DNA of 60,701 bases, from NCBI GenBank assembly GCA_947494195.1, contig CANLUC010000009.1, positions 1 to 60,701 of the forward strand, read 5' to 3'. The stretch is from an uncultured Nesterenkonia sp. Its GTDB lineage: Bacteria; Actinomycetota; Actinomycetes; Actinomycetales; Micrococcaceae. Position 1 is the first letter of the stretch, and each line of letters starts with the position of its first letter. Below, piece by piece: positions 10,489 to 27,767 of this stretch. The translations under genes and the position numbers were made by a program. The notes beneath the pieces are model-generated. The model was given only the letters and a program-made list of their open reading frames with translations. It was not told the DNA's origin and searched no databases.

Positions 10489-10505
10489 CCCCTGATCCTT
10501 AAGGG

Positions 10506-10576
10506 AAAAAATCGTAGACCTCTGGCGAATCGTAGAGCTATAGCTCTACGACATTGCCGGAGGTCTACGATTTTTT
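10506..10576. repeat. Nested palindromic element, copy 1
   Basis: The outer arms 10506-10526 and 10556-10576 (21 bp, starting A6TCGTAGACC and ending GGTCTACGAT6) pair with one mismatch. Inside is a perfect 22-bp palindrome at 10530-10551 whose left half is TCGTAGAGCTA. The A-run and T-run at the two ends make it a bidirectional intrinsic-terminator candidate, and it does lie between two convergent genes. It is related to copies at 26660-26724 and 27649-27716. The central palindrome inside the stem is more than a simple terminator needs. Confidence 0.9.
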
Positions 10577-10605
10577 CGGGGAACGGGGACCGGGGGAGGG
10601 GCTGC

Positions 10606-12003
10606 TCAGCGCTGGATCACGTGCGGCTGAGCGACCTCCTTGAGGCCCTGCAGGCCGAACTCCAGGCCGAAGCCGGACTGCTTCGCGCCGCCGAAGGGCA
10701 CTCGTGGATCGATCGCGCCGTGCTTGTTGATCCAGGTGGTGCCGGCCTGGAGCCGCGAGGCGACCTCAGTGGCACGGGCGACGTCTGAGGACCACACCGA
10801 AGAGCCGAGGCCGACCTCGAGACCGTTGGCCCACTCGATGGCCTGGTCCAGCTCGCTGTAGCGGATGATCGGCAGGGCAGGGCCGAACTGCTCCTCGGTG
10901 ACCAGCGGGTTCTGCGGGTCGATGTCTGCCACGAGGGTGGCGGGATAGAAGAAGCCCGCGTCGTCGTCGTCGGGGTCTGCACCGATCAGCACGCGCGCAC
11001 CGGAGTCCTTCGCGGCATCCACCAGTCGGGCCACGATGTCGCGCTGCTTCGCGTTCTGCAGCGGTCCCAGGACGTTCTGCTCCTCGAGGCCGATGCCCAT
11101 CGGCATTTTCGCGGCCACCTCGGTCAGCGCCTGGCAGACCTCCTCGTAGATCGCATCCGGCACATAGAGCCGCTTCAGCGCCGCGCAGGTCTGACCCGTG
11201 TTGATGAACGCGCCCCAGAACAGATCCTCCGCGATGGCCGCCGGATCAGCGTCATCGAGCACGATTCCGGCGTCATTGCCGCCGAGCTCCATGGTCATCC
11301 GCTTCATCGTGTCGGCGGCGGTCTTGATGATGGTCTTGCCCGTGGCCACCGAACCGGTGAACATGATCTTCGCGATATCGGCATGCTCGGTGAGCTGCTT
11401 GCCCAGCGAACCATCACCAGGCACTGCGATGAGCACGTCTGCCGGCAGCGCGGAGTTCAGCACCTTGACCAGGGCGAGCACACTGAGCGGGGTGTATTCG
11501 GAGGGCTTGATGACCACCGTGTTGCCCATGCGCAGCGAGGGGGCGATCTGCCAGACGGAGATCATCATCGGCCAGTTCCAGGGGCCGATCGCGCCGACGA
11601 CGCCCAGCGGGCGGTAGTGCAGCTCGGCGTACCCGGACTCGTCATCGAGGAGCACCTCCGGCTCCACCGGGATCGAGGCGGCGGCGCGGAGCCAGGCCGC
11701 GCACGCGCCGACCTCGAAGCGGGCGTTGGGCCCGTTGAGCGGCTTGCCCTGTTCGCGGGAGAGCAGCTGGGCGAGTTCCTCGGCGTGGGCCTCCACCGCG
11801 TCGGCGGCGGCGTGCAGTGCTGACTGACGCTCGCTGTCCGGCGTGGCGGCCCAGGAGACCTGGGCGCGCACGGCACGGGCGACGGCGTCGTCGAGGTCCG
11901 CGGCAGAGGTCTGCGGAGCGCGGGCGATCAGCTCGCCGGTGGCGGGGTCGAGGATCTCTGGACCGTCAGCGGACTGGATCTGCTCGAGCAGGGTGGTGGT
12001 CAT
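10606..12003 (-). CDS. NAD(P)-dependent aldehyde dehydrogenase
   Basis: A 465-residue aldehyde dehydrogenase. The start at 12003 follows AAGGAGAT, while an in-frame ATG at 12033 has no such site. Motifs in order are GPWNWPMMISVWQIAPSL (cofactor entrance), FTGSVATGK, MELGGNDAGIVL (general base Glu) and NTGQTCAALKR (nucleophile Cys). The family resembles succinate-semialdehyde/betaine-aldehyde-type dehydrogenases. It is the last gene in the paa direction, after a small membrane-protein gene. A phenylacetaldehyde-oxidising role feeding paaK would fit, but is inference. Confidence 0.88.
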   Translation of the reverse strand: MTTTLLEQIQSADGPEILDPATGELIARAPQTSAADLDDAVARAVRAQVSWAATPDSERQSALHAAADAVEAHAEELAQLLSREQGKPLNGPNARFEVGACAAWLRAAASIPVEPEVLLDDESGYAELHYRPLGVVGAIGPWNWPMMISVWQIAPSLRMGNTVVIKPSEYTPLSVLALVKVLNSALPADVLIAVPGDGSLGKQLTEHADIAKIMFTGSVATGKTIIKTAADTMKRMTMELGGNDAGIVLDDADPAAIAEDLFWGAFINTGQTCAALKRLYVPDAIYEEVCQALTEVAAKMPMGIGLEEQNVLGPLQNAKQRDIVARLVDAAKDSGARVLIGADPDDDDAGFFYPATLVADIDPQNPLVTEEQFGPALPIIRYSELDQAIEWANGLEVGLGSSVWSSDVARATEVASRLQAGTTWINKHGAIDPRVPFGGAKQSGFGLEFGLQGLKEVAQPHVIQR

Positions 12004-12158
12004 GATGTGGAATCTCCTTGGGTCACAGCTCAACTGGTATAGGACCAGCCTCGCGACCGCTTCGGAGATGTCTTTGTCCCCAGACGCACAGACCTGTGCA
12101 ATCGGTGCATACCTGTGTCGTGGGTCACATGCGAGTCACATGCGGGAGAAGCAGAGCC

Positions 12159-12386
12159 TCAGACGTGGTGGCGCGCGGCCCTGCGATCCTGGTGCAGCTC
12201 CCAGCGCAGCTCCGCCGCGGTGGTGATCGCAACCACCGAGCCGATGATCGGCAGGGCGAAGGCGACGAGGAACATCACCAGCGCGTGGGTCTTGGTGCTG
12301 GTCAGCGGGATGGCGAACAGCGCCGCGACGATGCCCAACACCCAGATGCCGAGGATGACCGCTTCAATGAATTCAATGGCTTCCAT
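12159..12386 (-). CDS. Small two-helix membrane protein
   Basis: The 75-residue protein has two hydrophobic helices (about 8-28 and 34-56) and a basic tail with a His pair at the end (RRAARHHV), so both ends probably face the cytoplasm. I do not recognise a family. The upstream ribosome-binding site is weak. Coding is supported by clean membrane topology and by fitting exactly between paaG and the aldehyde dehydrogenase without overlap. Function unknown. Confidence 0.55.
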   Translation of the reverse strand: MEAIEFIEAVILGIWVLGIVAALFAIPLTSTKTHALVMFLVAFALPIIGSVVAITTAAELRWELHQDRRAARHHV

Positions 12387-12450
12387 GCGAGAAGGCTAGA
12401 CCTGTGCCTGGCCCACGGCAAGCCTGAATGCGTATGTGCGCGGTCACGTT

Positions 12451-13221
12451 TCAGCGACCTTTGAAGACCGGCTGCCGCTTCGCCTGGAAGGCGGCGAAAC
12501 CCTCCGAATAATCTGCAGAGTTGCACAGCCTGCCCTGGGCGTGGTTCTCATCCTTGAGCGACTCCCAGAGTCCGAAACGCTGGTCTCGGAGTGCCGCCAC
12601 GAGTGCCTTCGACTCGCGGAAGGCCAGCGTGGCCCCCTGGGCGGCGACGGCGGCCTTTCCGCGAGTGAACTCGAGGAGCTCCTCCGGGTCCAGGACACGG
12701 GAGAAGAGTCCGGCGGACACCGCCTCAGCACCGGACATCAGGTCCCCGGTGTAGATCAGATCCAGCGTGCGGTGGGCACCGAGGCGCTCCACGAACAGAG
12801 CATGACCCCCGGAATCGAGCGTGGCGCCCAGCGCGGCGAAGGGAGAGCCGATCTTCGCGTTCTCGGCGACATAGACCACGTCTGTGGCGATGGCCAGTCC
12901 GAGGCCCACGCCGAGGCAGGCTCCCTGGACCGCGGCGAAGGTCGGCGCCGGGAAAGCTGCCATCCGGCGCATCAGCGGAGTGACCTTCCCCTGCAGGAAG
13001 CCCAGTGCATCGTCGGTGGCCGGCACGACCTCGGAGATGTCCCGCCCGGCGCAGAAGCCTCTGCCCTCGCCGCGCAGCAGCAGGGCGCGGACCCCGGCCT
13101 GTTCGGCCTCCTGGTACGCGGCGTCAAGCTCATCGACCGCCTGCTCGTTCAGGGAGTTCAGCTTCTTGGGGGCGTCGAGGACGATCTCGGCGACGCCGTA
13201 GTCGATGGTCAGGTTGATCAT
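12451..13221 (-). CDS. paaG: Enoyl-CoA hydratase/isomerase, PaaG-like ring-epoxide isomerase
   Basis: A 256-residue crotonase-fold protein. The oxyanion-hole segments are GRGFCAGRDISE and ACLGVGLGLAIATD. The catalytic region reads GATLDSGG, with Asp where PaaG has its acid and where hydratases normally carry Glu, so I favour 1,2-epoxyphenylacetyl-CoA isomerase over PaaF hydratase. It starts 26 bases after paaE with a GGAG site and is probably part of the paaABCDE operon. PaaF, paaH and the thiolase paaJ are not in this window, so these last steps must be encoded elsewhere. Confidence 0.8.
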   Translation of the reverse strand: MINLTIDYGVAEIVLDAPKKLNSLNEQAVDELDAAYQEAEQAGVRALLLRGEGRGFCAGRDISEVVPATDDALGFLQGKVTPLMRRMAAFPAPTFAAVQGACLGVGLGLAIATDVVYVAENAKIGSPFAALGATLDSGGHALFVERLGAHRTLDLIYTGDLMSGAEAVSAGLFSRVLDPEELLEFTRGKAAVAAQGATLAFRESKALVAALRDQRFGLWESLKDENHAQGRLCNSADYSEGFAAFQAKRQPVFKGR

Positions 13222-13247
13222 GGCAGCTCCTGTGTCGGTGATGGCGC

Positions 13248-14399
13248 TCAGGCGTCGTAGTCGACCACGAGCTTCTCGGAGGTGGGACGGGTCTGGCAGG
13301 TCAGGATGTAGCCCGCGGTGACCTCGTCGGATTCCAGCGCGAAGTTCTCCTCCATCTCGAAGTCACCCGAGACCACCTTCGCGCGGCAGGTGCCGCAGAC
13401 TCCGCCGGCGCACGCGAAGGGAACGTCCGAACGGGCGCGCAGAGCGGCGTTGAGCACGGTCTCTCCCGATCCCGTCGGGGAGGCCACCTGGCCGGTGAGC
13501 CCGTCGAGGGTGAACTCGATCTGGACGTTCTCGCCCTCCGGATCGGCCTGAACCTTCCGGCCCTGCTGGCCTTCGGGGCGGTCCGGGCGTCCGGTGGTGA
13601 ACAGCTCGAAGCGGATGTCGTTCTCATCGACCCCGCGGGCCGCGAGAGAGTCCCGAGCCATCTGCACCAGCTCGAAAGGCCCGCAGAGGAACCATTCATC
13701 GGTGTCCTGGACGCGCAGCACCTTGTCCAGCAGATCGCTGAGCTTCTCCTCGTCGATCCGCCCGGTGAGCAGCGGGTTGATGCGCTGCTCCCGGCTGAGC
13801 ACGTGGTGCACCGCGAGCCGGGAGGGGTAGCGGTCCTTGAGGTCGCCGAGCTCCTCGGCGAACATCACGTCGCCGGCAGAGCGGTTGGCATAGACGAGGT
13901 CGAAGGTCGAGTCCTTCGAGGCGGCCAGCACGGAGCGCGCGATGGCCATGATCGGGGTGATCCCGGATCCGGCGGCGAAGGCGACCAGGTGCACATCCGA
14001 GCGCAGGGCCACCGCCTCCTCCGCGAGCTTCGCGGGATTGTTCATCGAGGTGATCGCAGTCTTGGAGACGAAGGCCCCCGAGGGGTTCATCACCTCCATC
14101 TGATCCCCGGGCTTCAGCGACTCATTGGCCCAGTTCGAGAACAGTCCGCCGAGATCGCGCTTGATCGCCACACGGATCTCGCCCGGGGTGGGTTCGGTGC
14201 AGATCGAGTAGGAGCGACGGACCTCCTGGCCCTCCAGCTCGGTGCGCAGAGCGACATACTGCCCGGGTGCGTAGTCGAAGTCCTCCTGCAGCTCCTCGGG
14301 CACGGCGAAGGTGACCTCCACCGAGTCTGAGGTCAGCGGGCGCACCTCCGAGACGGTCAGCGTGGAGAAGCTCGCGCGGCGGCGGGTGGTCGTCGACAT
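13248..14399 (-). CDS. paaE: PaaE: phenylacetyl-CoA epoxidase reductase subunit
   Basis: A 383-residue electron-transfer subunit passing electrons from NADPH to the diiron oxygenase. The N-terminal FAD-binding barrel includes RSYSICTEP, the NAD-binding domain begins at about VAFAAGSGITPIMAI, and the C-terminal plant-type 2Fe-2S domain has FACAGGVCGTCRAKV plus a fourth Cys in YILTCQ. Its ATG overlaps the paaD stop (ATGA at 14399), showing tight coupling. Length and domain order are normal. Confidence 0.94.
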   Translation of the reverse strand: MSTTTRRRASFSTLTVSEVRPLTSDSVEVTFAVPEELQEDFDYAPGQYVALRTELEGQEVRRSYSICTEPTPGEIRVAIKRDLGGLFSNWANESLKPGDQMEVMNPSGAFVSKTAITSMNNPAKLAEEAVALRSDVHLVAFAAGSGITPIMAIARSVLAASKDSTFDLVYANRSAGDVMFAEELGDLKDRYPSRLAVHHVLSREQRINPLLTGRIDEEKLSDLLDKVLRVQDTDEWFLCGPFELVQMARDSLAARGVDENDIRFELFTTGRPDRPEGQQGRKVQADPEGENVQIEFTLDGLTGQVASPTGSGETVLNAALRARSDVPFACAGGVCGTCRAKVVSGDFEMEENFALESDEVTAGYILTCQTRPTSEKLVVDYDA

Positions 14400-14911
14400 C
14401 AGTGCACCTTGAAGTGGTCAAAGGGCTCCAGGCAGTCGCGGCACTGGTAGAGCGCCTTGCATGCGGTGGAGCCGAAGCGGGTCATCTCACGGGTGTTGGG
14501 GGAGTCGCAGCGCGGGCATTTCACGCTCAGACCCACCCGGACCGGCCCCAGGGCCGCCTTGCCGGTGGGCGGGGCGACGCCGTACTCGCGCAGCTTCGCC
14601 TTGCCCTCATCGGTCATCCAGTCGGTGGTCCAGGCCGGCTGCAGCACGGTGTCCACGCGCACGTCTTTGTGCCCGGCGTGGCGCAGCGCAGCGGTGACAT
14701 CGGCATGGATCGTGTCCATGGCGGGGCAGCCCGAATAGGTGGGCGTGATGACGACGACGGCGGTGCCGTCCTCCTCCAGCCGTGCCTCGCGCAGGATCCC
14801 GAGATCGGCGATGCTGAGCACCGGGATCTCCGGATCGTTCACGGTGGCGGCGACCTCCCAGACGGTGGCGTCGGCGGGAAGGGTCACAGCTTCTGGTCTC
14901 AACGTCCCCAT
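14399..14911 (-). CDS. paaD: PaaD: phenylacetyl-CoA epoxidase assembly protein
   Basis: A 170-residue protein of the DUF59/MIP18 type, needed to mature the epoxidase iron sites. The N-terminal MIP18 domain has NDPEIPVLSIADLGI and TYSGCPAM. The C-terminal zinc-ribbon-like module has Cys pairs in KCPRCDSPNT and YQCRDC. The start at 14911 follows AAGGAGC at good spacing; the frame is open further upstream without a good site. It lies 11 bases after paaC. Confidence 0.92.
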   Translation of the reverse strand: MGTLRPEAVTLPADATVWEVAATVNDPEIPVLSIADLGILREARLEEDGTAVVVITPTYSGCPAMDTIHADVTAALRHAGHKDVRVDTVLQPAWTTDWMTDEGKAKLREYGVAPPTGKAALGPVRVGLSVKCPRCDSPNTREMTRFGSTACKALYQCRDCLEPFDHFKVH

Positions 14912-14922
14912 GACTGCTCCTT

Positions 14923-15750
14923 TCACCAGGTGGCTCCGGGGTGGCTGCGGGCCAGGACCTGCATCTCGGCGAGGATGAAGCCGCGCTGCTCGGAGTGACG
15001 CCCCGAGCGGTCGGCTCCGTGTGCGCCGGACATGTCCGGCACGCTCAGTCCGGCCTCTTCGATGACCTGGTGCAGCCGGTTCAGCGTGGACTCGCGCAGC
15101 GCCGAGGGCAGCACCGCGACGTCGGCGAGCTCGGCGATGGGCTCCACATCGGTGAAGAGCTCCTCCACATAGGACCAGACCGAATCCAGGCCCGACTGCA
15201 TGCGTCGGGAGGACTCCTCGGTGCCCAGTCCCAGACGGAGCACCCACTGGGCGGCGTGGTCCTGGTGGTAGTCCACCTCCTTGTGCGCCTTCGCCGCGAT
15301 CGCCGCGAGAGTGGCATCGGTGGAGTTCACCAGACGGCTGTAGAGCTCGTGCTGGTAGAAGCTGAAGATCAGCTGCCGAGCGATGGTCTTGCCGAAGTCA
15401 CCGTTCTCCTGCTCCACGAGGCGGCAGGAGCGGAACTCCTCCTCCTCGCGGAAGTAGGCGAGGTCGTCCTCGGACTTGCCCCAGGCGGTGCCGGCATAGG
15501 TGAGCAGGAACCTGGCGTGGCCGAGCAGGTCGAGTGCGATGTTCGCCAGGGCCACGTCTTCTTCCAGCTCCGGTGCCCGAGACACCCAGGCGCCGAGTCG
15601 CTGCGAGAGCATCAGCGCGTCGTCGCCCAGGATCAAGGCATAGCGGGCGGTGGCCTCATCGGCCGTGGCGCCTGAGGCGGCGATCTCTTCGGCGGTGATC
15701 GCCTCGCCCTGAGACTGCCGGGTGGCGGAGTCATGCGATGCGAAGCTCAC
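14923..15750 (-). CDS. paaC: PaaC: phenylacetyl-CoA epoxidase structural subunit
   Basis: The 275-residue ferritin-like helical subunit pairs with PaaA but lacks a functional diiron site in this family. Characteristic segments are ALILGDDALMLSQRLGAW, ANIALDLLGHARFLL and KAHKEVDYHQDHAAQWVLRLG. The start codon is GTG at 15750 and overlaps the paaB stop. It has an extra acidic/Ser-rich N-terminus of about 30 residues before the conserved fold. Confidence 0.93.
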   Translation of the reverse strand: MSFASHDSATRQSQGEAITAEEIAASGATADEATARYALILGDDALMLSQRLGAWVSRAPELEEDVALANIALDLLGHARFLLTYAGTAWGKSEDDLAYFREEEEFRSCRLVEQENGDFGKTIARQLIFSFYQHELYSRLVNSTDATLAAIAAKAHKEVDYHQDHAAQWVLRLGLGTEESSRRMQSGLDSVWSYVEELFTDVEPIAELADVAVLPSALRESTLNRLHQVIEEAGLSVPDMSGAHGADRSGRHSEQRGFILAEMQVLARSHPGATW

Positions 15751-16046
15751 AGGTGCTTCACCCCTTCTGACTGGGTGTAATAGGTGGCGTGGCGGTAGCT
15801 CTTGCCCTGGGCCGATTCGAAGTAGCCGCCCTTGGAGTCAGGATCCGAGGCCATGATCGCGTCGGCCGGAACCACCCACACCGAGGTGCCCTCATTGCGC
15901 CGGGTGTAGAGATCCCGAGCATTGCGGATCGCCATGGTGGCGTCCGGAGCGTGCAGCGAGCCGGCGTGCACGTGGGAGAGTCCCCGCGAGCCTCGGATGA
16001 AGACCTCCCACAGGGGCCAGGTGCTCGAATCTGCGCTGGAGGACAT
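15747..16046 (-). CDS. paaB: PaaB: phenylacetyl-CoA epoxidase small subunit
   Basis: A 99-residue subunit that bridges PaaAC heterodimers in the epoxidase. The diagnostic run is WEVFIRGSRGLSHVHAGSLHA, followed by NARDLYTRRNEGTSVWVVPA. The C-terminus KSYRHATYY is also typical. A GAGGCC-type site precedes the ATG. It overlaps paaC by 4 bases and lies 74 bases after paaA, the largest gap in the operon. Confidence 0.95.
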   Translation of the reverse strand: MSSSADSSTWPLWEVFIRGSRGLSHVHAGSLHAPDATMAIRNARDLYTRRNEGTSVWVVPADAIMASDPDSKGGYFESAQGKSYRHATYYTQSEGVKHL

Positions 16047-16120
16047 GGCCTCGCCTTTCTTGCGGTGGTGACGACGTCTGGTCGGTCAGCGTTCAGGGGT
16101 GGTGCGAAGGTGGACGAGGC

Positions 16121-17152
16121 TCAGGCGCCAATCAGGGCTGCCCGGTCGCGGTCCTGCTCCTGGGATGCTCGGTTGGCGTAGGCCACGGCGGCTTCGCGGA
16201 CCCAGGCTCCCTCGTCGCGGGCGCTGCGGTAGTGCTCCAGGCGCTGGCGGCTCAAGGGGCCGTTGCCCTTGATCACCGCGAAGAACTCGTCCCAGTCCAG
16301 CTCGGCGAAGTCATAGTGGCCGCGCTCCTCGTTCCACTTCAGCTCGGGATCGGGGAGGGTGAGGCCCAGGGCCTCGACCTGCGGGACGATCATGTCCACG
16401 AAGCGCTGCCGCAGCTCGTCGTTGGTGAAGCGCTTGATGTTCCACGCCATCGATTGCTGCGAGTTCGGGGAGTCCCCGTCCGGCGGGCCGAACATCTGCA
16501 GCGCCGGTCCATAGAAGCGGTCCACGGCGGCCTGGGCCATCTCGCGCTGCTCCTGCGTGCCGTGGGACAGCGAGTAGAGGATCTCCCAGCCCTGGCGCTG
16601 GTGGAAGGACTCCTCCTTGCAGATGCGGACCATGGCGCGGCCATACGGCCCGTAGGAGGCGCGGCAGAGCGGCACCTGGTTGACGATCGCAGCGCCGTCG
16701 ACCAGCCAGCCGATGGCGCCGACGTCGGCCCAGGTGCGTGCTGGGTAGTTGAAGATCGAGGAGTACTTGGCCTTGCCGCTGTAGAGCTGGTCATACATGT
16801 CTTCGCGGGGGGTGCCCAAGGTCTCGGCGGCGGAGTAGAGGTACAGCCCGTGGCCAGCCTCGTCCTGGACCTTGGCCATCAGAATCGCCTTGCGTTTGAG
16901 GCTCGGTGCACGCGAGATCCAGTTGCCCTCGGGCTGCATGCCGATGATCTCGGAGTGGGCGTGCTGGGAGACCTGTCGCACCAGAGACTTCCGGTAGGAC
17001 TCCGGCATCCAGTCTCGCGGCTCGATGCGAGAGTCATCGGCGATGATCTCGTCGAAGCGGTGCTGTCCGGACTCTGCCTCGTCCCGCGCCGCAGCGGCAT
17101 CAGCCTCATCAGCGAGACGAAGGGGTGCGTGCTGGTGGTTCTGGGGTGACAT
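16121..17152 (-). CDS. paaA: PaaA: phenylacetyl-CoA 1,2-epoxidase catalytic subunit
   Basis: A 343-residue diiron oxygenase subunit that forms the ring 1,2-epoxide of phenylacetyl-CoA. Iron-ligand regions are [15 protein letters not shown] (ExxH) and [15 protein letters not shown] (EExxH). I choose 17152 (MSPQNHQH) because GAGG lies 6 bases upstream; the in-frame ATG at 17158 touches that site. Promoter elements and a PaaR-type operator lie immediately upstream. It is the first gene of paaABCDE-paaG. Confidence 0.95.
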
Positions 17153-17176
17153 GGTCATCCTCGATTCCGTCGCATG

Positions 17177-17198
17177 ATTTACCGACCGTTCGTTCAGT
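17177..17198. promoter_or_regulatory. PaaR-type operator in front of paaA
   Basis: This 22-bp site reads ACCGACCGTTCGTTCA in its core and differs from the recalled actinobacterial PaaR consensus at two defined positions. It covers the last bases of the -10 element at 17196-17201 and the start of transcription, so a bound repressor would block the paa operon. Confidence 0.78.
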
Positions 17199-17223
17199 AT
17201 AGCACTGAGGGTGTGACGGTCAA
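17196..17223 (-). promoter_or_regulatory. paaA operon promoter
   Basis: On the minus strand TTGACC (17223-17218) and TATACT (17201-17196) are spaced by 16 bases, a near-consensus housekeeping promoter. The PaaR-type operator overlaps the -10. This is the best promoter match I see in the window. Confidence 0.75.
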
Positions 17224-17306
17224 CACGCGGGGCGGCAGAGTCGAGGGTGCGCCTGCAAGCGGGAGGTGAGTGGTGGTCTGACGTGCGGTGACGGGGCTCG
17301 CTGCGG

Positions 17307-18767: not shown

Positions 18768-19163
18768 CCGTTGGTACCTCCATACGCTTGCGTGATCAGG
18801 GTCGGCGGCCGATCCTGAGCGGAAGCGGCTCCGCTCCGTCATGGGCGTACGTCGCGCCTTCAGCTGAAATCTTCAGTTCTACGGTCGGTCAAAAATTCGA
18901 CACATCGCCGCTAGTCGTCGTGGACCACCTTGGGAATGGCACTGACGAGGAGCAATAGCTGATGAGCGTCCCGAATATAAGTCGACGCTAGCGTGAACAA
19001 AAGCGAGGGGTCAACGGGTATGCGACGCTGTTCTCCGCGCGGAGTAGAAACTGGATGCAGGCCGGTGGGCCCGGATCGCCGCGCTGATGCGGATCCAGGC
19101 AGTTGCCATGCGCAATGAAAACCAGCGCAATGAAAATCTGCGCAATGAGAATTTCGGCCGAGG
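18768..19163. other. 396-bp intergenic stretch with no gene
   Basis: No reading frame here has a convincing start, length or family resemblance. It must hold the flotillin promoter on its left side and the 3' end of paaR on its right. The one notable feature is the 15-bp tandem repeat at 19110-19154. The sequence around 18890-19000 is less GC-rich than its surroundings. Confidence 0.6.
19110..19154. repeat. Three tandem 15-bp repeats downstream of paaR
   Basis: Three adjacent units start with GCGCAATGAAAA, GCGCAATGAAAA and GCGCAATGAGAA, each 15 bases long. They end 9 bases before the paaR stop codon region. On the plus strand they read as Arg-Asn-Glu-Asn repeats, but no credible gene contains them. 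They could be protein-binding iterons or a slippage tract. Confidence 0.8.
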
Positions 19164-19784: not shown

Positions 19785-19805
19785 GACTCCCACACTAGCG
19801 GCGGA

Positions 19806-21137: not shown

Positions 21138-21141
21138 GGAT

Positions 21142-21603
21142 TCACTTCTTTCCGCCGGGGGAGGCGATGGTGCGCGAGCGGCCGCGGAAGATTGCGATGA
21201 GGTCGTCGCCGCGGCTGATCGTGACATCGGTGAAGCCGCTGCGTCCGGTGTGCGCCACCTCGATCGCTTCGGCGACGACTTCGTCACCGAGCAGGGCGGG
21301 TTTGAGGAAGTTGATGTCGACGCCGGAGGCCACGGTGATCGTGCCCTCATCCAGCTCGGGGTGATTGCAGGACATCGCGAAGCAGGTGTCGGCCAGGGAG
21401 AAGATCATCCCGCCGTGGGCGATGTCGAAGCCGTTGGTCATGTCCTCACGGATCGTCATGCTGATCTTGGCGTGGCCAGGGTCAGCCTGCAGGACCACGA
21501 TTCCCAGCGCCCGCGAGGTGCGATCGTTTTCCAGCATCCGGTGCCGGGGGCCCTTCACGGAGCTCTCATGACCCGCCGGGGCGAGCTGGGTGGCTTCAGT
21601 CAT
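21142..21603 (-). CDS. paaI: PaaI: hydroxyphenylacetyl-CoA thioesterase
   Basis: A 153-residue hotdog-fold thioesterase. The active-site segment is GFDIAHGGMIFSLADTCFAMSCN, with the conserved Asp in the helix, and the family continues with GVDINFLKPALLGD. PaaI releases CoA from dead-end phenylacetyl-CoA metabolites. It is the first gene of the paaI-paaK unit and its promoter region carries a PaaR-type site. Length is normal. Confidence 0.9.
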   Translation of the reverse strand: MTEATQLAPAGHESSVKGPRHRMLENDRTSRALGIVVLQADPGHAKISMTIREDMTNGFDIAHGGMIFSLADTCFAMSCNHPELDEGTITVASGVDINFLKPALLGDEVVAEAIEVAHTGRSGFTDVTISRGDDLIAIFRGRSRTIASPGGKK

Positions 21604-21623
21604 CGGTGCTCCTCATCGCATTT

Positions 21624-21645
21624 CCAGACCGAATGGTCAGTAAGT
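21624..21645. promoter_or_regulatory. PaaR-type operator in front of paaI-paaK
   Basis: On the minus strand this degenerate 22-bp palindrome has the core ACTGACCATTCGGTCT and conserves the CGGT half-site. It matches the PaaR consensus at most but not all defined positions. A TTGACA element at 21677-21672 followed 18 bases later by TTCAGT could be the promoter, placing the operator over the start of transcription. Confidence 0.65.
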
Positions 21646-21752
21646 CAACTGAAGCACCGGAGCAGATGTGATGTCAAGCACGTAAGGTGGAATTGAGATG
21701 GGTGGCGCTCGTTCCTGGCGGCGCGACCACTGACTTTCTAAGCGACTGCCGC

Positions 21753-22721
21753 TCAATCCCTCAGCATCGCCGCGTAGCCCGAGCGGAAGTCCCGGTGCAG
21801 CAGCTCGCCGAGCAGCCCGTGCAGGCGGGCGCCGTCGAGTGCCTTGCCATGACCTGCGCTGAGCAGATCCACCGGCCGGGAACTCTCCAGCAGCGCCGGC
21901 TCCAGGCGTGGGTCGTTCCAGGGGCGGGGCAGCTCGAGCTGATCGGCCATCCAGTTGTGCACCAGGCCGACGGGGATGGGGAGCTCGTCCACGCCCAGCA
22001 CCAGCTCCGGTGGGGACGCGCGGGTCAGCAGCTCGACGGCGGCGCGTGCGGCGTCGTCGGAATGGATGCGGTTGGAGATCCTGAAGGCATCCTGGGCGTC
22101 CTGACCTGCAGCTTCGCCCACCGTGCCGGCGCGCAGCTGCTTGCGGATGCGATCTCGGCCCGGACCGTAGATGCCGGAGAGGCGAAGCGTGGCGCTGCGC
22201 CGCCGTGGGGATGAGTCGGGTCCGCCGGCGCGCCAACTCGACAGCAGCTCCTCCGTGCGGGCCAGGATCTCGCCCGTGGGAGTGGCGGGCGTCGGCGGGG
22301 CCGATTCGTCGAGCATGCCTTCGGCCTCGCCCATCACCGAGGTGGAGGAGACCAGCAGGACTCGCACGGAGTCTGCGAGGCCTGCCTGTTCAAGGCGGTC
22401 CAGCACGGTGCGCAGTCCCTGGAGATAGACCTGGTCGTAGCGCTGCGGATCTCGACTGCCGGCGGCGGGGGAGAAGACCAGCACTGCGGTGTCCGCAGGC
22501 GGGAGCGGCACGGTATCGGGCTCGGTGAGGTCCATGGCCGCGCCGTCGAACTGAGCGGGGAGGCGCTCCGGGCTGCGCCGCCATCCGGTGACGGAGAAGC
22601 CGCGGTCGAGCAGGCGGTGCCCGATGCGCGTGCCGACGTCGCCGCAGCCGACCAGCACGGCGCGTGGGGTGGCGGAGCCCTTGGCGGATTCCTCGGCGGG
22701 GGCGGCTGCAGGAATGCTCAT
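21753..22721 (-). CDS. NAD(P)-binding epimerase/YeeZ-like protein
   Basis: The 322-residue Rossmann-fold protein begins, after about 20 Ser/Ala residues, with VLVGCGDVGTRIGHRLLDRG, a modified GxGxxG dinucleotide-binding loop. It continues with FSPAAGSRD, SSTSVMG and SGIYGPGRDRIRKQL, which resembles YeeZ-type NAD-dependent epimerase/dehydratases. The usual YxxxK catalytic pair is not obvious, so activity is uncertain. It is transcribed away from the tRNA and probably stands alone. Confidence 0.75.
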   Translation of the reverse strand: MSIPAAAPAEESAKGSATPRAVLVGCGDVGTRIGHRLLDRGFSVTGWRRSPERLPAQFDGAAMDLTEPDTVPLPPADTAVLVFSPAAGSRDPQRYDQVYLQGLRTVLDRLEQAGLADSVRVLLVSSTSVMGEAEGMLDESAPPTPATPTGEILARTEELLSSWRAGGPDSSPRRRSATLRLSGIYGPGRDRIRKQLRAGTVGEAAGQDAQDAFRISNRIHSDDAARAAVELLTRASPPELVLGVDELPIPVGLVHNWMADQLELPRPWNDPRLEPALLESSRPVDLLSAGHGKALDGARLHGLLGELLHRDFRSGYAAMLRD

Positions 22722-22802
22722 GCTCCGAGCCTAACGAGAATCGGGAGTGCACGTGGAGCTCGAGCGTGGGGCGTCTGGGCGGAGCGTGGCGCGCCGGATG
22801 CA

Positions 22803-22842
22803 GAAGAACCCCCGTCAGGTGCATTCCCGACGGGGGTTCTTC
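22803..22842 (-). terminator. Hairpin terminator downstream of tRNA-Ser
   Basis: A perfect 14-bp stem (GAAGAACCCCCGTC at 22803-22816 with its complement at 22829-22842) encloses a 12-base loop. It lies 10 bases beyond the 3' end of the tRNA gene on the minus strand. No T-run follows. Confidence 0.75.
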
Positions 22843-22852
22843 GATCACGCGG

Positions 22853-22941
22853 CGGAGGCGGGGAGATTTGAACTCCCGGTCCGCTTTGAGGCGGACACTT
22901 CATTAGCAGTGAAGCCCATTCGGCCGCTCTGGCACGCCTCC
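22853..22941 (-). tRNA. serX: tRNA-Ser, anticodon GCT
   Basis: The 89-base minus-strand gene has the acceptor stem GGAGGCG paired with CGCCTCC and a G discriminator. The anticodon arm CTTCA-CTGCTAA-TGAAG carries GCT, which reads AGC and AGU. A long variable arm (CCGCC/GCGG) is typical of class II serine tRNAs, and the T arm contains GTTCAAATC. CCA is not encoded. Confidence 0.95.
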
Positions 22942-23080
22942 TGTGCCCACGATTGCGGCGAACCGTTCTCATGCGCCCGTCTAGACTAGCGGTTCGGTCA
23001 GGGAACTGACAAAGCGCGTGCCCGCAGTACTCTGGTCGGGACGAATCCGCCGAAGAGCAGACCAGGAGACCGCGCCGCCC

Positions 23081-25189
23081 ATGCCCCGCCAGATGCAGGA
23101 ACGCAGAGTCGCCGTGATCGGCGCCGGGCCTCGTGGCACCTCGTTCCTCGAACGACTCCTCGCCGCCGTGGAGCATGCCCCGGGTGAGGCTGTGGAGACC
23201 GCGCTGCGCATCCTGGTGATCGACCCGGCTCCGCACGGCCCAGGCCGGGTCTGGAACCCGCGACAGTCGCCGCTGTACCTGATGAACACCGCTGCGAACT
23301 TCCCCACCGCCGCGCCGGCCGGGGACACCCAGGCGCGGCTGCCGGCGTCGTCGGTCTCTCGGTCCTTTGCGCAGTGGCGCGAGGGCCATGCGGGGGAGGC
23401 CACCGCGAGCCCCGTGCGCAGCGACAGCTTCGAACCGCCGGTCTTCCACGGGGTGGACCACGGTGGGCAGGACTCCGACTACCCCACTCGGGCCGCCTAC
23501 GGGCAGTACCTCAGCTGGCTGCACGCCGAGGTCTGCGCGTCGCTGCAGCGGCACCCCGGCATCACCGTGGAGCACATCCAGGCCGAGGTCACCGGGCTGC
23601 GTCGTAGCCAGACCGGCTATGAGCTGACCCTGGAGAACGAGAACGAGAACGAGAACGACGACGACGACGCCCGCCGGCTCCGCGCCGAGCAGGTCGTGCT
23701 GGCGCTGGGACATATCCCTGCCGGGTTGAACGAGACCGGCCAACACTTCAGCGCGGTGGCCGAAGAGCTGAGGCTGCACTACCAGCCGCCCGCCATTCCC
23801 ACCGAGGTGGACTACCACGCGCTGCCCGCGGGGGAGAACGTGCTGGTCCGCGGGATGGGACTGAACTTCTTCGACCTGATGATCCAGGCCAGCGTGGGTC
23901 GGGGCGGGGTGTTCCACGAGCATCCGGACCGTTCGGCGGGTCAGCGGCTGGAGTACCTCGCGACTGGAGATGAGCCGCACCTGATGGCCGGCTCGCGGCG
24001 GGGCACTCCGTACCGGGCCAAGTCCACCGCGCTGACCACAGCCCCTGGATTCGCGCCGGTGGGCGTGACCCTGCATCACCTGCATGCCGACGCGGTGGCC
24101 GCGGCGGAGCGCCGTCACGACGTGCTGGACTTCTCCGCGCATCTGTGGCCGCTGATCCAGCGCGACGTGCTCCGCACCTACTACCGGACCCTGGAGACGA
24201 TCGCGCCGGAGCTCTTCGGCGCGGAGTTCCTCTCCGCCCTGGATGATCTGCTCGCGGACACTCATCTGGGCGAGGCGGTGCTGCAGGCCCGGGGACACCG
24301 GCTGCTGCGCGAACACGCCCCCGACGTGCTCTGGTTCGACATCCGCTCGCTGGGCAGGCCCTTCGGCGGGCTGACCTTCGACTCCGCGGAGCAGTACCAG
24401 CAGCACATGGAGACCTACCTCGAAGATGACGCGGTCACCTCCGCGGCAGGCACGCAGAGTCCGGTGAAGATGGCGATCGGCGCGCTGCATCTGGCCCGGA
24501 TGGAGGTCAAGGCGCTGATCAGCCAGGGACGCGTCTCGCAGTCCAGTCAGATCAGCGAGATCGAGGGATGGTTCGAGTCGCTGGTCGAGGGACTCGCCAG
24601 CGGTCCGCCGCTGCAGCGGATCGAGGAGCTGGCCGCGCTGACGCGTGCGGGGGTGGTGGAGTTCCTGGGTCCGGAACCGATCTTCGACGTCGACCGGGAG
24701 ACCGGCTGCTTCACCGCGGAATCCCCCGCCGTGGCCGCCCCGGCCTACCAGGCTCGCTGGCTGCTTGAGGCGATGATGCCCGCGAACCGGGTCCAGCTCT
24801 CCCGCTCGCCGCTGGTCGCGGGCCTGCTGCGCAGCGGAATGGCCCGCCCGCGTGAGCTGGTCGATGCCTCGGGGGCCCCGCGGGCGGGCAAGGGCTTCGA
24901 TGTCACGCCGCTGCCACACCGGCTGATCCCCGCCGATGATGCTGCCGCGGAGGAGATCTACGTGCTCGGGCTGCAGCTAAGCTCCGTGCAGTGGGGGACC
25001 GCGATCGCCGCGGAGGCAGGCGGTGATCCGGAGTCTTCGGCGCGGAGCCTCGCGGACGCGGATGCCGCGGCGCGCGCGGTGCTCGCTGGGCCGGTTTCGG
25101 CCGCTGATTCCGCTGAGCCCGCTGGGCCGGAGCCGGACGCTGGGCTGGACGCTGAGTCGACGGCTACAGGATCGCTCGACCCGGATTGA
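23081..25189 (+). CDS. Large FAD/NAD(P)-binding protein
   Basis: The 702-residue protein begins with RRVAVIGAGPRGTSFLERLL, an FAD/NAD-binding nucleotide loop, and continues with an early motif VIDPAPHGPGRVWNPRQSPLYLMNTAA, which places it in the FAD-NAD(P)-binding (NAD_binding_9) family found in actinobacteria. A second dinucleotide region lies around ENVLVRGMGLNFFDL. An acidic repeat (residues about 185-196) is an insertion encoded by a short tandem repeat. The C-terminal 50 residues are rich in Ala and acidic residues. Its substrate is unknown; the family includes N-hydroxylase-like and reductase-like members. It overlaps the next convergent gene by 26 bases. Confidence 0.75.
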   Translation: MPRQMQERRVAVIGAGPRGTSFLERLLAAVEHAPGEAVETALRILVIDPAPHGPGRVWNPRQSPLYLMNTAANFPTAAPAGDTQARLPASSVSRSFAQWREGHAGEATASPVRSDSFEPPVFHGVDHGGQDSDYPTRAAYGQYLSWLHAEVCASLQRHPGITVEHIQAEVTGLRRSQTGYELTLENENENENDDDDARRLRAEQVVLALGHIPAGLNETGQHFSAVAEELRLHYQPPAIPTEVDYHALPAGENVLVRGMGLNFFDLMIQASVGRGGVFHEHPDRSAGQRLEYLATGDEPHLMAGSRRGTPYRAKSTALTTAPGFAPVGVTLHHLHADAVAAAERRHDVLDFSAHLWPLIQRDVLRTYYRTLETIAPELFGAEFLSALDDLLADTHLGEAVLQARGHRLLREHAPDVLWFDIRSLGRPFGGLTFDSAEQYQQHMETYLEDDAVTSAAGTQSPVKMAIGALHLARMEVKALISQGRVSQSSQISEIEGWFESLVEGLASGPPLQRIEELAALTRAGVVEFLGPEPIFDVDRETGCFTAESPAVAAPAYQARWLLEAMMPANRVQLSRSPLVAGLLRSGMARPRELVDASGAPRAGKGFDVTPLPHRLIPADDAAAEEIYVLGLQLSSVQWGTAIAAEAGGDPESSARSLADADAAARAVLAGPVSAADSAEPAGPEPDAGLDAESTATGSLDPD
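23633..23668. repeat. In-gene microsatellite (GAGAAC)4(GAC)4
   Basis: Four GAGAAC units are followed by four GAC units inside the FAD/NAD(P)-binding gene, encoding a Glu-Asn then Asp tract. Both units are multiples of three, so length changes would keep the frame. This is a likely site of length variation between strains. Confidence 0.9.
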
Positions 25190-26615
25190 GTCGATAGTCA
25201 GGGTCAAAGACGTTTTTGATGCTGCGCTGCAGCTCGATGACCTCGGTCGACTGTTCCCAGTCGAGCCAGCGCAGCTTATAGGTCCCGATGCCGTGCTCGC
25301 CGGTGATCGTGCCGCCCATCTCCAGTGCGATCCGCACCGAACCGTCCAGGGCCGCATGCAGCCGGGACATCGCCGAGGCGGGTGCGCCGTCGTCGTCGTG
25401 GTGTTCCTCGGTGCTGTGCTGATCATTCGTGGAATCTGGCTCGGTCGCCAGCTCAGAACTCGGCACGCTGAAGGTGGGGTGCAGGTTGCCGTCCCCGGCG
25501 TGGGCGACGACCTTGAGCTGGACGTCATGCTCTACGGCGAGGTCCTGGATGGCGCGGATGTAGTCCACCAGCCGGGATCGCGGCACGGCGACGTCCTCGC
25601 CCACACGGACCTCGGTCACGACCCCGTCGCCGCGCGCGTGCCGGCGCAGCTCGATCAGGCGCTCCGATTCGGTGGAGCCGGGGTCGCTGACCGTGGCACC
25701 GAGCGCGCGCAGCGCCTCGCGGATGATCTCGGCCTCGATGCCCGCCCCGTGCCCGTCGGTCTGGATGAGCAGCAGGGTGTTTCCTCGGGTGGCGAGATCC
25801 GAGCCCTGCGCCTCATCCAGGGCGAGCATGGTGCGGTGGTCCAGCAGCTCCGTGATCGCCGGCTGGACCCGGGCCTTGCCGATGTCGAGCACGCCCTGGG
25901 CTGCGGTGGTGAGCTCGTCGAAGAACGCGGCGATGGTCTCAGTGTGCTGACTGAGGTGGCGCAGCCGCACGGTGACGCCGACGACGATGCCCAGCGTCCC
26001 CTCCGACCCGACGAAGAGGCTGGTCAGGTCGTAGCCTGCGACCCCTTTGAAGGTGGCCTGTCCGGTGTGGATCAGGGTGCCGTCGGCGAGCACCACGTCG
26101 AGCGCCAGCACCGAGTCTCGGGTGACGCCGTACTTGGCGCAGCGCAGTCCGCCAGCGTTGGTGGCGACGTTCCCGCCGATGGTGGAGGTGCGGTAGCTGG
26201 CCGGGTCCGGGGCGTACATCAGCCCGTGCTGCGCCGCGGCAGTGTTCAGGTCCGCGTTGATCACCCCGGGTTCGACGACGGCGACCTCGTCCTCGGGACG
26301 CATTGCCAGGATCTGGTTCATCCGGGTCAGGTTCAACACTACCGAGCCTGCTGTGGTGTTGGCCCCGCCCGAGACGGAGGTCCCGGCACCGCGGGTGATC
26401 AGCGGGAAGCCGTGATGGGCCGAGAGCTGGACCAGGTGCTGGACGTCCGCGACCGATTCCGCGAAGACGACGGCGAGCGGGGTGTGCACCTGCCAGTGCT
26501 CCAGCGGCCCCTTGTCCACGGAGTGTGACTCGAGCTCTGCCGGGTCGGTAGTCACGGTGTGAGGCGCGAAGGCGCTGCGCAGGGCGGTGCGGACATCATT
26601 GTCGGAGGAGCTCAT
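25164..26615 (-). CDS. FAD-linked 2-hydroxyacid oxidase (glycolate oxidase GlcD / D-lactate dehydrogenase type)
   Basis: A 483-residue flavoprotein oxidising glycolate or D-lactate to the 2-oxoacid. The FAD (PCMH) domain has LITRGAGTSVSGGANTTAGSVVLNL and the signature TIGGNVATNAGGLRCAKYG. The C-terminal part shows VAHAGDGNLHPTFSVP and GEHGIGTYKLRWL, which are the catalytic and cofactor segments of this family. About 30 residues near the middle of the C-terminal half are a Thr/Asp/His-rich insertion (SNDQHSTEEHHDDDG). There are no partner GlcE/GlcF genes beside it. It is convergent with, and overlaps, the preceding gene. Confidence 0.85.
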   Translation of the reverse strand: MSSSDNDVRTALRSAFAPHTVTTDPAELESHSVDKGPLEHWQVHTPLAVVFAESVADVQHLVQLSAHHGFPLITRGAGTSVSGGANTTAGSVVLNLTRMNQILAMRPEDEVAVVEPGVINADLNTAAAQHGLMYAPDPASYRTSTIGGNVATNAGGLRCAKYGVTRDSVLALDVVLADGTLIHTGQATFKGVAGYDLTSLFVGSEGTLGIVVGVTVRLRHLSQHTETIAAFFDELTTAAQGVLDIGKARVQPAITELLDHRTMLALDEAQGSDLATRGNTLLLIQTDGHGAGIEAEIIREALRALGATVSDPGSTESERLIELRRHARGDGVVTEVRVGEDVAVPRSRLVDYIRAIQDLAVEHDVQLKVVAHAGDGNLHPTFSVPSSELATEPDSTNDQHSTEEHHDDDGAPASAMSRLHAALDGSVRIALEMGGTITGEHGIGTYKLRWLDWEQSTEVIELQRSIKNVFDPDYRLNPGRAIL

Positions 26616-26659
26616 GGGAACTGAGTGTAGGTCAGGCGCGTCACACCCTCCCCGCGAAA

Positions 26660-26724
26660 AAATCGTAGAGCTCTAGCAAGTCGTAGGGCTATAGCCTTAC
26701 GACAACGCGATAGCTCTACGATTT
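26660..26724. repeat. Nested palindromic element, copy 2
   Basis: The outer arms 26660-26677 (AAATCGTAGAGCTCTAGC) and 26707-26724 pair with two mismatches. The inner 24-bp palindrome at 26680-26703 (left half GTCGTAGGGCTA) has one wobble. A six-A run at 26657-26662 gives a T-run on the minus strand, so it can act as terminator for the minus-strand lipoprotein gene that ends 21 bases away. It also sits in front of the FAD oxidase gene. Confidence 0.88.
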
Positions 26725-26744
26725 CTAGGGTCCGAGGGAGGGCT

Positions 26745-27170
26745 TCACGGGATTTCGGTCGATGAGTTCACCCGCCACTGCTGGATGTCCTCATCGCATA
26801 CCTCGGGGACGCCGTAGATCGTCGGCCCCGCCATGTTTCCTCCTACGAAGATGTCGTCTCCATCCGCGTAGTCCTCACCCAGGTAGCTGAACCCCTCACC
26901 GTCGGAAGCTTCAGCAACCTCATGGGCGGGAAAGATAGCGAGAGTCAGCGCGTTGTCCGGTTCAGGGCCTTCGATGTAGAAACAACCGTCGATCTCTGCG
27001 ACCTGACCCTCGAGTGCCACCTCGGCGCCGCCCTGTTGCTCGACGATGCGATTCGGAACACCGGCTGGCGCATCCGGATCCTGGCGATTCGTGGTGCACC
27101 CGAGCAGAGCTGCGCCCAGCAGTGCTCCCACGACGGTGGTCGCGCCGGCGGCTCGTATCTGATGTCCCAT
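26745..27170 (-). CDS. Lipoprotein, paralogue A
   Basis: The 141-residue protein has a signal peptide ending in the lipobox LLGC (Cys25), so it is probably attached to the outer face of the membrane. The mature part shares GQVAEIDGCFYIE, GEDYADGDDIFVGG and VPEVCDEDIQQW with the next gene. The two conserved Cys of the mature region could form a disulphide. I do not recognise a family with known function. It is followed by palindrome copy 2, which may terminate it. Confidence 0.78.
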   Translation of the reverse strand: MGHQIRAAGATTVVGALLGAALLGCTTNRQDPDAPAGVPNRIVEQQGGAEVALEGQVAEIDGCFYIEGPEPDNALTLAIFPAHEVAEASDGEGFSYLGEDYADGDDIFVGGNMAGPTIYGVPEVCDEDIQQWRVNSSTEIP

Positions 27171-27215
27171 CGCTCCACGCTCGCAGAGATTGCACCGTGG
27201 CGGAAGGAATGCAGG

Positions 27216-27632
27216 TCAGCCCTCCGGATGGACCTGCCATTGCGGGATGTCCTCATCACATTCAGCCGGAACCGGGTAGGTGACGCCGACGGTGGCGCTG
27301 CCGCCGACGCTGATCTCATCCCCGTCGGTGTAGTCCTCACCGTTGAGCTCGAACCCATCTCCAGTGGGAGACGCGTCCACCATGTCAGCCGGGAAAACCG
27401 CCACCCAAAGATCGCCCGCGGACTTCCCATCTTCGATATAGAAGCAGCCATCGAGCTCAGCGACCTGCCCGCGCAACACGGCGGAGTCGCCGCCGTCGTC
27501 CTCGGTCACGCGGGTGGCCACGCCGTCGGGCGCATCGGCGGTGCTCGGTTCTGCCCCACACCCGAGGAGGCCGAGGACGAAGATTCCGGCCAGCGTGCCG
27601 GCCGTGCTCACGGCGTGAATCTCATGTTCCAT
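27216..27632 (-). CDS. Lipoprotein, paralogue B
   Basis: The 138-residue protein has a lipobox GLLGC (Cys25) and the same conserved blocks as the downstream gene: GQVAELDGCFYIE, GEDYTDGDEISVGG and AECDEDIPQWQV. The two genes are 45 bases apart in the same direction, so they look like a tandem duplication that has since diverged. The start at 27632 is only 17 bases from palindrome copy 3. The promoter therefore probably overlaps or lies beyond that element. Function unknown. Confidence 0.78.
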   Translation of the reverse strand: MEHEIHAVSTAGTLAGIFVLGLLGCGAEPSTADAPDGVATRVTEDDGGDSAVLRGQVAELDGCFYIEDGKSAGDLWVAVFPADMVDASPTGDGFELNGEDYTDGDEISVGGSATVGVTYPVPAECDEDIPQWQVHPEG

Positions 27633-27648
27633 GGCCCCACCGTGCCAG

Positions 27649-27716
27649 AAATCGTAGAGCTCTTGCGTTGTCGTAGCGCTATAGCCCTACGACTTGCTAG
27701 AGCTTTACGATTTTTT
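27649..27716. repeat. Nested palindromic element, copy 3
   Basis: The outer arms 27649-27666 (AAATCGTAGAGCTCTTGC) and 27696-27713 pair with two non-Watson-Crick positions, and a T-run continues to 27716 on the plus strand. The inner palindrome at 27670-27693 (left half GTCGTAGCGCTA) has one mismatch. It separates the lipoprotein genes from the metYX leader. Unlike copy 2 it lies at the 5' side of a gene. Confidence 0.88.
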
Positions 27717-27767
27717 CAGGGGAGGGGGTGCACTTGCACGGGGGCGTTCCGCGATGCAGACTTGACC

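What the first reader, a model, noticed from the sequence alone, without database searches (positions are those of the whole stretch)
10506..27716. Family of three nested palindromes with covarying base pairs
Three elements (10506-10576, 26660-26724, 27649-27716) share a layout: outer arms A3-6TCGTAGA..., a short spacer, a 22-24 bp inner palindrome with the same TCGTAG/CTACGA core, then the other outer arm. Copies differ, yet two pairs change together. In the outer stem position 11 is C-G in copy 1 and G-C in copies 2 and 3. In the inner stem position 8 is A-T in copy 1 and G-C in copy 2. This suggests the folded shape is selected. A simple terminator would not need a second, inner palindrome. 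Possible roles are a bidirectional terminator, a REP/MITE-like mobile palindrome, or a protein-binding or cruciform site.
Basis: partly seen in the sequence, partly recalled or inferred. Interest (0 to 1): 0.8.

Follow-up and report, generated by a model that had tools for sequence, protein, structure and literature searches.

The report
Nesterenkonia hairpin repeats at gene ends
These three nested palindromes belong to a family of DNA hairpins scattered through the genome of an actinobacterium (Nesterenkonia), kept at the same gene ends in related species while their letters change in matched pairs, and they most likely act as two-way transcription stop signals.

Summary
All three elements are at the stated coordinates and far beyond chance. 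They are 3 of 17 copies in this genome, a Nesterenkonia (Micrococcaceae). A covariance model finds the family in 18 of 30 Nesterenkonia genomes (three only marginally) and in no other genus sampled. Each copy is an oriented unit: two tandem 18-bp arms, a centre TCGTAGnGCTATAGCnCTACGA, a 19-bp return arm and A/T tracts. Across 53 copies the stem shows strong two-sided covariation. Where a gene's 3' end faces a copy, the median distance to the stop is 32 nt; 16 of 33 locus groups are convergent against 24 of 227 background gaps. T-runs are commoner where a gene reads in. All 17 own copies have orthologues in 2 to 9 species, but 15 copies from more distant species have none among those fetched. 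No RAYT transposase accompanies them. Most likely they are REP/BIME-like palindromes retained as bidirectional 3'-end terminators. Unusually, 12 of 17 lie in close pairs, most around genes that differ between species. No transcript data were available, so function is inferred; a generic terminator scan listed none of the three.

The parts
10506..10576 (+). Element copy 1, between the converging 3' ends of a sulfatase gene (ends 10488) and an aldehyde dehydrogenase gene (- strand, stop at 10606)
   Evidence: Covariance model 92.5 bits at 10502-10580; flanking genes by Pfam; RNA fold z -12.2
10512..10521 (+). Copy 1 left outer arm TCGTAGACCT, preceded by A6 at 10506-10511
   Evidence: alignment A3
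10530..10551 (+). Copy 1 inner palindrome TCGTAGAGCTATAGCTCTACGA
10561..10570 (+). Copy 1 right outer arm AGGTCTACGA, followed by T6 at 10571-10576
26657..26724 (+). Element copy 2, 3' of the small lipoprotein-like gene 26745-27170 (-) and upstream of the FAD-oxidase gene 25164-26615 (-); the six-T run is on the - strand, the strand of the incoming gene
   Evidence: 86.3 bits at 26653-26731; context; exit sequences
27649..27716 (-). Element copy 3, reversed relative to copies 1 and 2, in a divergent gap between the lipoprotein-like gene 27216-27632 (-) and the SAM-IV riboswitch/PLP-enzyme gene (+); its six-T run is on the + strand, where no called gene reads in
   Evidence: 80.6 bits at 27642-27720 on -; Rfam SAM-IV 27771-27900; Pfam Cys_Met_Meta_PP for 28034-29485; exits
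26745..27632 (-). Two paralogous lipoprotein-like genes bracketed by copies 2 and 3; gene content between the two elements differs in G203 and G214
   Evidence: no Pfam or NCBIfam match; 'lipoprotein-like' is read by eye from the translation

Best explanation
The three palindromes are members of a Nesterenkonia-specific family of dispersed, oriented hairpin repeats (17 copies here). In the own species and its nearer relatives they were seeded in ancestors and are now inherited in place. Most likely each is transcribed from one or both sides and folds into a long hairpin that in many copies ends in a U-tract. It would then act as a bidirectional terminator, or 3'-end barrier, that stops convergent or tandem transcripts from running into each other and protects their 3' ends. 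Shown here: the family, its orientation, the conserved stem, the orthologous retention, the 3'-end placement and the T-run polarity. Inferred: that the RNA hairpin terminates transcription, and that selection for this keeps the pairing. The way the family first spread is unknown.
For: Family: 17 places in the own genome (34 matches over both strands) and 18 of 30 Nesterenkonia genomes. Structure: on 53 copies, 16 of 25 pairs change on both sides, 123 two-sided cells against a shuffled mean of 59.5, covariation score 0.268 against 0.135 shuffled (0 of 500 reach it) and at most 0.117 when the partner strand is slid. Orthology with compensation: the hemA-side copy is found in 9 species, and in one of them (G205) TCGTAG/CTACGA has become TCGCAG/CTGCGA. 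Placement: 16 of 33 locus groups are convergent against 24 of 227 element-free gaps of at least 70 nt (odds ratio 8, p = 1e-6). The median distance to a facing stop codon is 32 nt (84 of 112 within 60 nt), and to a start codon 151 nt (10 of 50 within 60 nt). T-runs: TTTT follows the stem on 60 of 112 exits with an incoming gene and 14 of 50 without; group-weighted 0.37 against 0.17, permutation p = 0.011. The window's copy 2 has its six-T run on the strand its upstream gene uses.
Against: 13 of 82 copies lie between divergent genes by the crude gene caller, including window copy 3 and a tenA-side locus kept divergent in four species. Many ends lack a T-run, and in G206/G211/G212 only 1 of 28 exits has one; in the own genome alone the T-run difference (13 of 22 against 4 of 12) is not significant. 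The consensus terminator scan of 9500-28500 listed 5 sites, none of them an element, with 5.9 expected from shuffles. Orthologous sites without the element mostly have no strong hairpin of their own (3 of 18 and 1 of 26 do), so the sites do not require a terminator. A test for G-U wobble on the transcribed strand was inconclusive (20 G-U against 15 A-C). 15 copies of G204, G206, G211 and G212 have no orthologue among the fetched copies, so retention is shown only for the nearer relatives and a few G212 sites. No RNA data were available.
Confidence: 0.55

Rival explanations
1. A REP/MITE-like mobile palindrome that spread with a transposase and was tolerated at gene 3' ends because insertions there do least harm; any termination is a by-product.
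For: Dispersed similar units; lineage-specific consensus (paralogues in one genome 0.779 identical, cross-clade orthologues 0.770, cross-clade paralogues 0.726); 15 copies of the more distant species G204, G206, G211 and G212 without an orthologue among those fetched; sites without the element in relatives are often short gaps with no hairpin; known REPs also sit within 20 bp of converging 3' ends (PMC3733652, section 15 read).
Against: All 17 own copies fall in groups with 2 to 9 species, with compensatory changes (inside pairs the grouping does not always resolve which copy matches which), which a decaying relic would not keep; Y1 transposase in 1 of 30 genomes; motif arms never occur outside full units in the own genome except one 1-mismatch hit, so no longer element with such ends was seen there; no target duplication identified.
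Confidence: 0.25
2. A DNA-level site: four TCGTAG half-sites in ++-- order bound by a sequence-specific protein (recombinase, nucleoid or regulatory protein), so that paired elements border exchangeable gene cassettes.
For: TCGTAG cores are among the least changeable parts while arms drift; clade-wide coordinated changes; 12 of 17 own copies lie in pairs within 2 kb (0 of 20000 simulations reach 6 pairs); gene content differs between species exactly between direct copies (L056 against L079, L083 against L107), and an 8-kb operon sits between two copies at the window copy-1 locus in Nesterenkonia sp. Act20.
Against: Direct-repeat deletion by ordinary homologous recombination explains L056/L079 and L083/L107; sequence read by eye as the same bracketed gene's end also follows the neighbouring gene in three species with no element in the 130 nt shown. 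None of the seven called genes of the Act20 island is a recombinase by Pfam. Two-sided covariation of the stem is not needed by a double-stranded binding site in which each half-site is free to vary.
Confidence: 0.15
3. A DNA uptake sequence that doubles as terminator when inverted, as in Neisseria.
For: Inverted repeat of a short word at gene ends; in Neisseria closely spaced inverted DUS act as terminators (PMC2397512, passages seen).
Against: The word is not abundant and almost never solitary in the own genome: 53 hits at up to 1 mismatch, all but one inside the 17 units.
Confidence: 0.02

Closest known systems
REP / BIME / REPIN palindromes (GTAG- and CGTC-tagged families)
   Same: Small dispersed intergenic palindromes, mainly between convergent or unidirectional genes and next to 3' ends; units often in inverted orientation (PMC3733652, abstract, passages and section 15 read).
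   Different: 17 copies instead of a high copy number; the GTAG here is inside the paired stem, not an unpaired tag; no Y1/RAYT transposase in 29 of 30 genomes; own copies all orthologous with relatives; larger four-arm unit. The main text of that paper has 0 hits for 'actinobacteri' and 'arthrobacter'.
DUS-type inverted-repeat terminators (Neisseriaceae)
   Same: A repeated short word, inverted, forming a terminator hairpin at gene ends (PMC2397512, passages).
   Different: Practically no solitary copies of the word, low number, oriented four-arm unit.
Ordinary bidirectional intrinsic terminators
   Same: A-tract/stem/T-tract symmetry between convergent genes.
   Different: Ordinary terminators do not share sequence between loci (general knowledge); these do, with clade-specific consensus and internal duplicated arms. 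The generic terminator scan did not list them.
attC sites of integrons (recalled comparison)
   Same: Oriented imperfect palindromes that can flank exchangeable genes.
   Different: No arrays and no GTTRRRY-type boxes seen by eye; no integrase among the seven called genes of the one island scanned.

Membership tests
REP (RAYT-associated) | Dispersed intergenic palindrome family in one genome | tested here: met
   17 places in the own genome
REP (RAYT-associated) | Cognate RAYT / Y1 transposase in the genome | tested here: not met
   PF01797 in 1 of 30 genus genomes (G204), none in own; control genomes rang in 5 of 14
REP (RAYT-associated) | Unpaired GTAG (or CGTC) tag at the foot of the hairpin | tested here: not met
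   GTAG lies inside the outer and inner stems, paired with CTAC
REP (RAYT-associated) | Placement near 3' ends, convergent or tandem gaps | tested here: met
Intrinsic bidirectional terminator | Stable stem-loop on both strands | tested here: met
   82 copies folded on both strands without shuffles; three copies with shuffles, copy 1 on both strands
Intrinsic bidirectional terminator | T-run after the stem on the strand of incoming transcription | tested here: inconclusive
   60 of 112 against 14 of 50 exits; 1 of 28 exits in G206/G211/G212; generic scan lists none of the three elements
Intrinsic bidirectional terminator | RNA 3' ends or loss of coverage at the site | not testable with these tools
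   no RNA-seq held
MITE | Target site duplication / precise empty site | tested here: inconclusive
   orthologous sites without the element, read by eye, were not alignable to the flanks; no duplication seen
MITE | Parent transposon with the same ends | tested here: inconclusive
   no solitary arms in own genome apart from one 1-mismatch hit; other ends not excluded
DNA uptake sequence | Hundreds of copies of the word, many solitary | tested here: not met
Known RNA family (Rfam) | Match above gathering score | tested here: not met
   only SAM-IV in the window; none in five element loci

The most novel reading that the evidence does not exclude
The elements are recognition sites of a sequence-specific trans-acting factor that drifts with them in each lineage (hence clade-wide coordinated changes at orthologous sites). 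Paired copies act as borders at which accessory genes are exchanged, making a dispersed, oriented-palindrome cassette system without arrays in an actinobacterial genus.
Probability: 0.08. Interest if true: 0.8.

Novelty: new variant of a known kind. Interest (0 to 1): 0.5.

Why it matters
It gives a small, countable, orthologously retained palindrome family in a group for which my searches listed no described family of this kind (listings only). Whether intergenic palindromes persist because they terminate transcription or because they once moved is an open question for REPs. Here the same site can be compared with and without the element, with compensatory changes, in close relatives, and the copies bracket gene sets that differ between species, so the two readings can be separated by one Term-seq experiment and a few deletions.

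Tried and rejected
RAYT partner: PF01797 in 1 of 30 genomes, rejected. DNA uptake word: rejected on counts. Plasmid or phage origin: no blastn match of copy 1 (E up to 1e-5) in 72,556 plasmid and 50,697 phage records; no exact core in viral contigs. Known RNA family: none. Wider spread: the model hits 4 of 149 sampled family genomes, all Nesterenkonia (1 of 32 genera), with stricter filters; the pattern hits 3 of 197, all Nesterenkonia. Generic terminator scan of 9500-28500: 5 sites against 5.9 expected, none an element; the scan demands an unbroken stem with a loop of 3-8, which the elements' internal loops may fail. 'Every gene end needs a hairpin here, and the element is one solution': not supported (there one decayed element, L118, is one of the 3 of 18 with a strong hairpin, and one element lying partly past the 110-nt cut, L141, is counted as 'without'; one locus, L136, was cut off and not scored). 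G-U wobble as proof of an RNA-level role: inconclusive. Orientation relative to transcript in one-side contexts: 16 of 24, not decisive. Cassette insertion as the only reading of the pairs: weakened because sequence that I read as the end of the gene bracketed in G042 directly follows the neighbouring gene, with no element in the 130 nt shown, in three other species. Independent repeats of the element-gene-element unit around the 401-aa gene: the G212 case turned out to be orthologous to the own locus. Only G206 (L096) has homologous cargo at what looks like another locus, and this was not followed further. Literature: six searches (Nesterenkonia twice, RAYT in actinobacteria, REP with bidirectional terminators, actinobacterial intergenic repeats, Micrococcaceae inverted repeats) listed no paper whose title or shown abstract names such a family; none of the listed papers was opened. 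PMC3733652 was read as abstract, passages and one section; PMC2397512 and PMC2267715 as passages.
Full report
OBSERVATION. The three elements are present as described. The inner 22-bp core (up to 3 mismatches) occurs three times in the window and never in 100 shuffles. RNA folds of copy 1 (+), copy 2 (-) and copy 3 (+) give -58.2, -41.9 and -45.5 kcal/mol with z of -12.2, -5.6 and -7.1. The window belongs to a 2.78-Mb, 27-contig genome. Exact cores in the named genome collection come only from Nesterenkonia sp. Act20, 7 stretches (Micrococcaceae).

COPY NUMBER AND ANATOMY. The own genome holds 17 copies. Aligning 26 copies (17 own, 9 from relatives) showed that a left spacing of 18 goes with a right spacing of 19, or the reverse. 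Turning the second class round gives one oriented, gap-free unit in 26 of 26 copies: A/T-rich tract, TCGTAGAGCTnTAGCgaa, TCGTAGnGCTATAGCnCTACGA, nine variable bases, AGCTCTACGA, A/T-rich tract. In the own clade the ten bases outside the modelled unit are 68% C on the left and 57% G on the right (46 copies). The 15-bp arm motif (one mismatch allowed) has 53 hits in the own genome against 10 for the reversed control, and all but one lie inside the 17 units.

STRUCTURE. On 53 copies from the genus, 16 of 25 pairs change on both sides, 123 cells against 59.5 shuffled, and the covariation score is 0.268 against 0.135 shuffled (0 of 500) and at most 0.117 for slid partners. In G212, G213, G178 and G042 some copies are nearly continuous hairpins of about 29 bp, with the regions that are internal loops in the own species paired. 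Related sequences inflate the shuffle control, so the orthologous compensations matter more: for example at the hemA-side locus G205 has TCGCAG/CTGCGA where the other eight species have TCGTAG/CTACGA.

DISTRIBUTION. 18 of 30 Nesterenkonia genomes match at E <= 0.01; three of these (G197, G198, G201) have best E-values of only 0.003-0.01 and may be chance. In a sample of 149 family genomes 4 match, all Nesterenkonia. Viral contigs, plasmids and phages gave none.

INHERITANCE. Comparing flanking proteins, all 17 own copies fall into orthologous groups of 2 to 9 species (inside pairs the grouping does not always resolve which copy matches which); the MgtC-side copy is shared even with the more distant G212, and G212 also has the element-gene-element arrangement of locus L051. 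In contrast 8 of 8 copies of G206, 3 of 3 of G211, 3 of 4 of G212 and 1 of 1 of G204 have no orthologue among the fetched copies; two copies of G214 that stand alone lie at the window copy-1 locus. Cross-clade orthologues are 0.770 identical, against 0.726 for cross-clade paralogues, so loci keep a memory. Paralogues in one genome are as alike (0.779) as those orthologues, with clade-specific columns (for example column 13 of the core is A in 26 of 27 clade-A copies and G in 11 of 17 clade-B copies; 44 copies in ten loci). That points to partly concerted change, by gene conversion or by a shared recognising factor; I cannot tell which.

PLACEMENT. With a simple codon-usage gene caller, 44 of 82 copies are convergent, 24 tandem, 13 divergent and 1 inside a called gene. 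Counted once per locus group, 16 of 33 are convergent, 13 tandem and 4 divergent, against 24 of 227 convergent among element-free gaps of at least 70 nt in the same stretches. The median distance to a facing stop is 32 nt and to a start 151 nt. TTTT after the stem is commoner on exits with an incoming gene: 60 of 112 against 14 of 50, permutation p = 0.011 by group; in the own genome alone it is 13 of 22 against 4 of 12, not significant. Against a simple terminator role: divergent copies kept in several species; species in which the T-run is missing (1 of 28 exits in G206/G211/G212); a generic terminator scan that lists none of the three elements; and sites without the element that mostly have no strong hairpin (3 of 18 and 1 of 26 with z below -2.5).

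PAIRS AND VARIABLE GENES. Six neighbouring pairs within 2 kb are found in the own genome; the simulation mean is 0.198 and 0 of 20000 runs reach six. Five of the six pairs bracket called genes (one of them only a 72-aa call), such as lipoprotein-like genes, an aldo/keto reductase and an SDR/FMN-reductase pair; the sixth (L052) lies only 171 bp apart with no called gene between. Content between the two elements differs between species: in L056 against L079 one gene plus one element is present or absent exactly between direct copies, and in L083 against L107 likewise. At the window copy-1 locus, Act20 has an 8-kb catabolic operon between two copies. At two loci G214 and G205 read differently after the shared gene and show no element in the 300-480 nt printed. 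Deletion between direct copies explains part of this: sequence that I read by eye as the 3' end of the nuclease-like gene bracketed in G042 follows the MgtC gene directly in three species with no element in the 130 nt shown (L117, L122, L127). The inverted pairs and the Act20 island are not explained by simple deletion.

INTERPRETATION. The shown facts are a genus-limited, oriented, four-arm hairpin family, retained in the own clade and its nearer relatives at orthologous gene ends with its pairing. The inferred step is function. A bidirectional terminator or 3'-end barrier fits the placement, the T-run polarity and the retention best (0.55). A REP/MITE-like origin is likely in the distant past but is not the present behaviour shown in the own clade, and the RAYT-REP definition is not met. 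A protein-bound or recombination-border role remains open because of the pairs and the clade-wide changes.

Noticed in passing
window 27771-27900 (+): SAM-IV riboswitch (98.3 bits) upstream of a Cys/Met-metabolism PLP enzyme gene 28034-29485; element copy 3 ends about 54 nt before it.
   Followed up: partly
window 22851-22941 (-): tRNA-Ser(GCT) gene.
   Followed up: no
L072:4573-12791 (Nesterenkonia sp. Act20): An 8-kb catabolic operon (amylase, nitrilase-type hydrolase, ABC transporter, histidinol dehydrogenase, LysR) sits between two inverted element copies at the locus where own and G203 have one element.
   Followed up: partly
L083:4757-6204 (G042) and G066 C3:682459-683981: Direct element copies about 1.4 kb apart at the MgtC locus; in G042 they bracket what reads like a secreted thermonuclease-type lipoprotein (identified by eye, not tested). 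The G066 spacer was not examined.
   Followed up: partly
L051:5298-6503: A 401-aa protein without Pfam or NCBIfam match, with 1-8 matches per genome in 28 of 30 Nesterenkonia genomes (some matches are fragments); by eye a winged-helix part plus a DUF559/Vsr-like nuclease part (recalled, untested).
   Followed up: no
L096 (G206): A homologue of the 401-aa gene lies between two direct element copies at what looks like a different locus from own.
   Followed up: partly
clade-A copies, 10 nt outside each end of the modelled unit: C-rich left and G-rich right edges (68% C, 57% G; 46 copies) form a third, outer layer that model R1 did not include.
   Followed up: no
G204 C1:570565-570867 (L111): The only Y1 (IS200-like) transposase match in the 30 genus genomes.
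   Followed up: no
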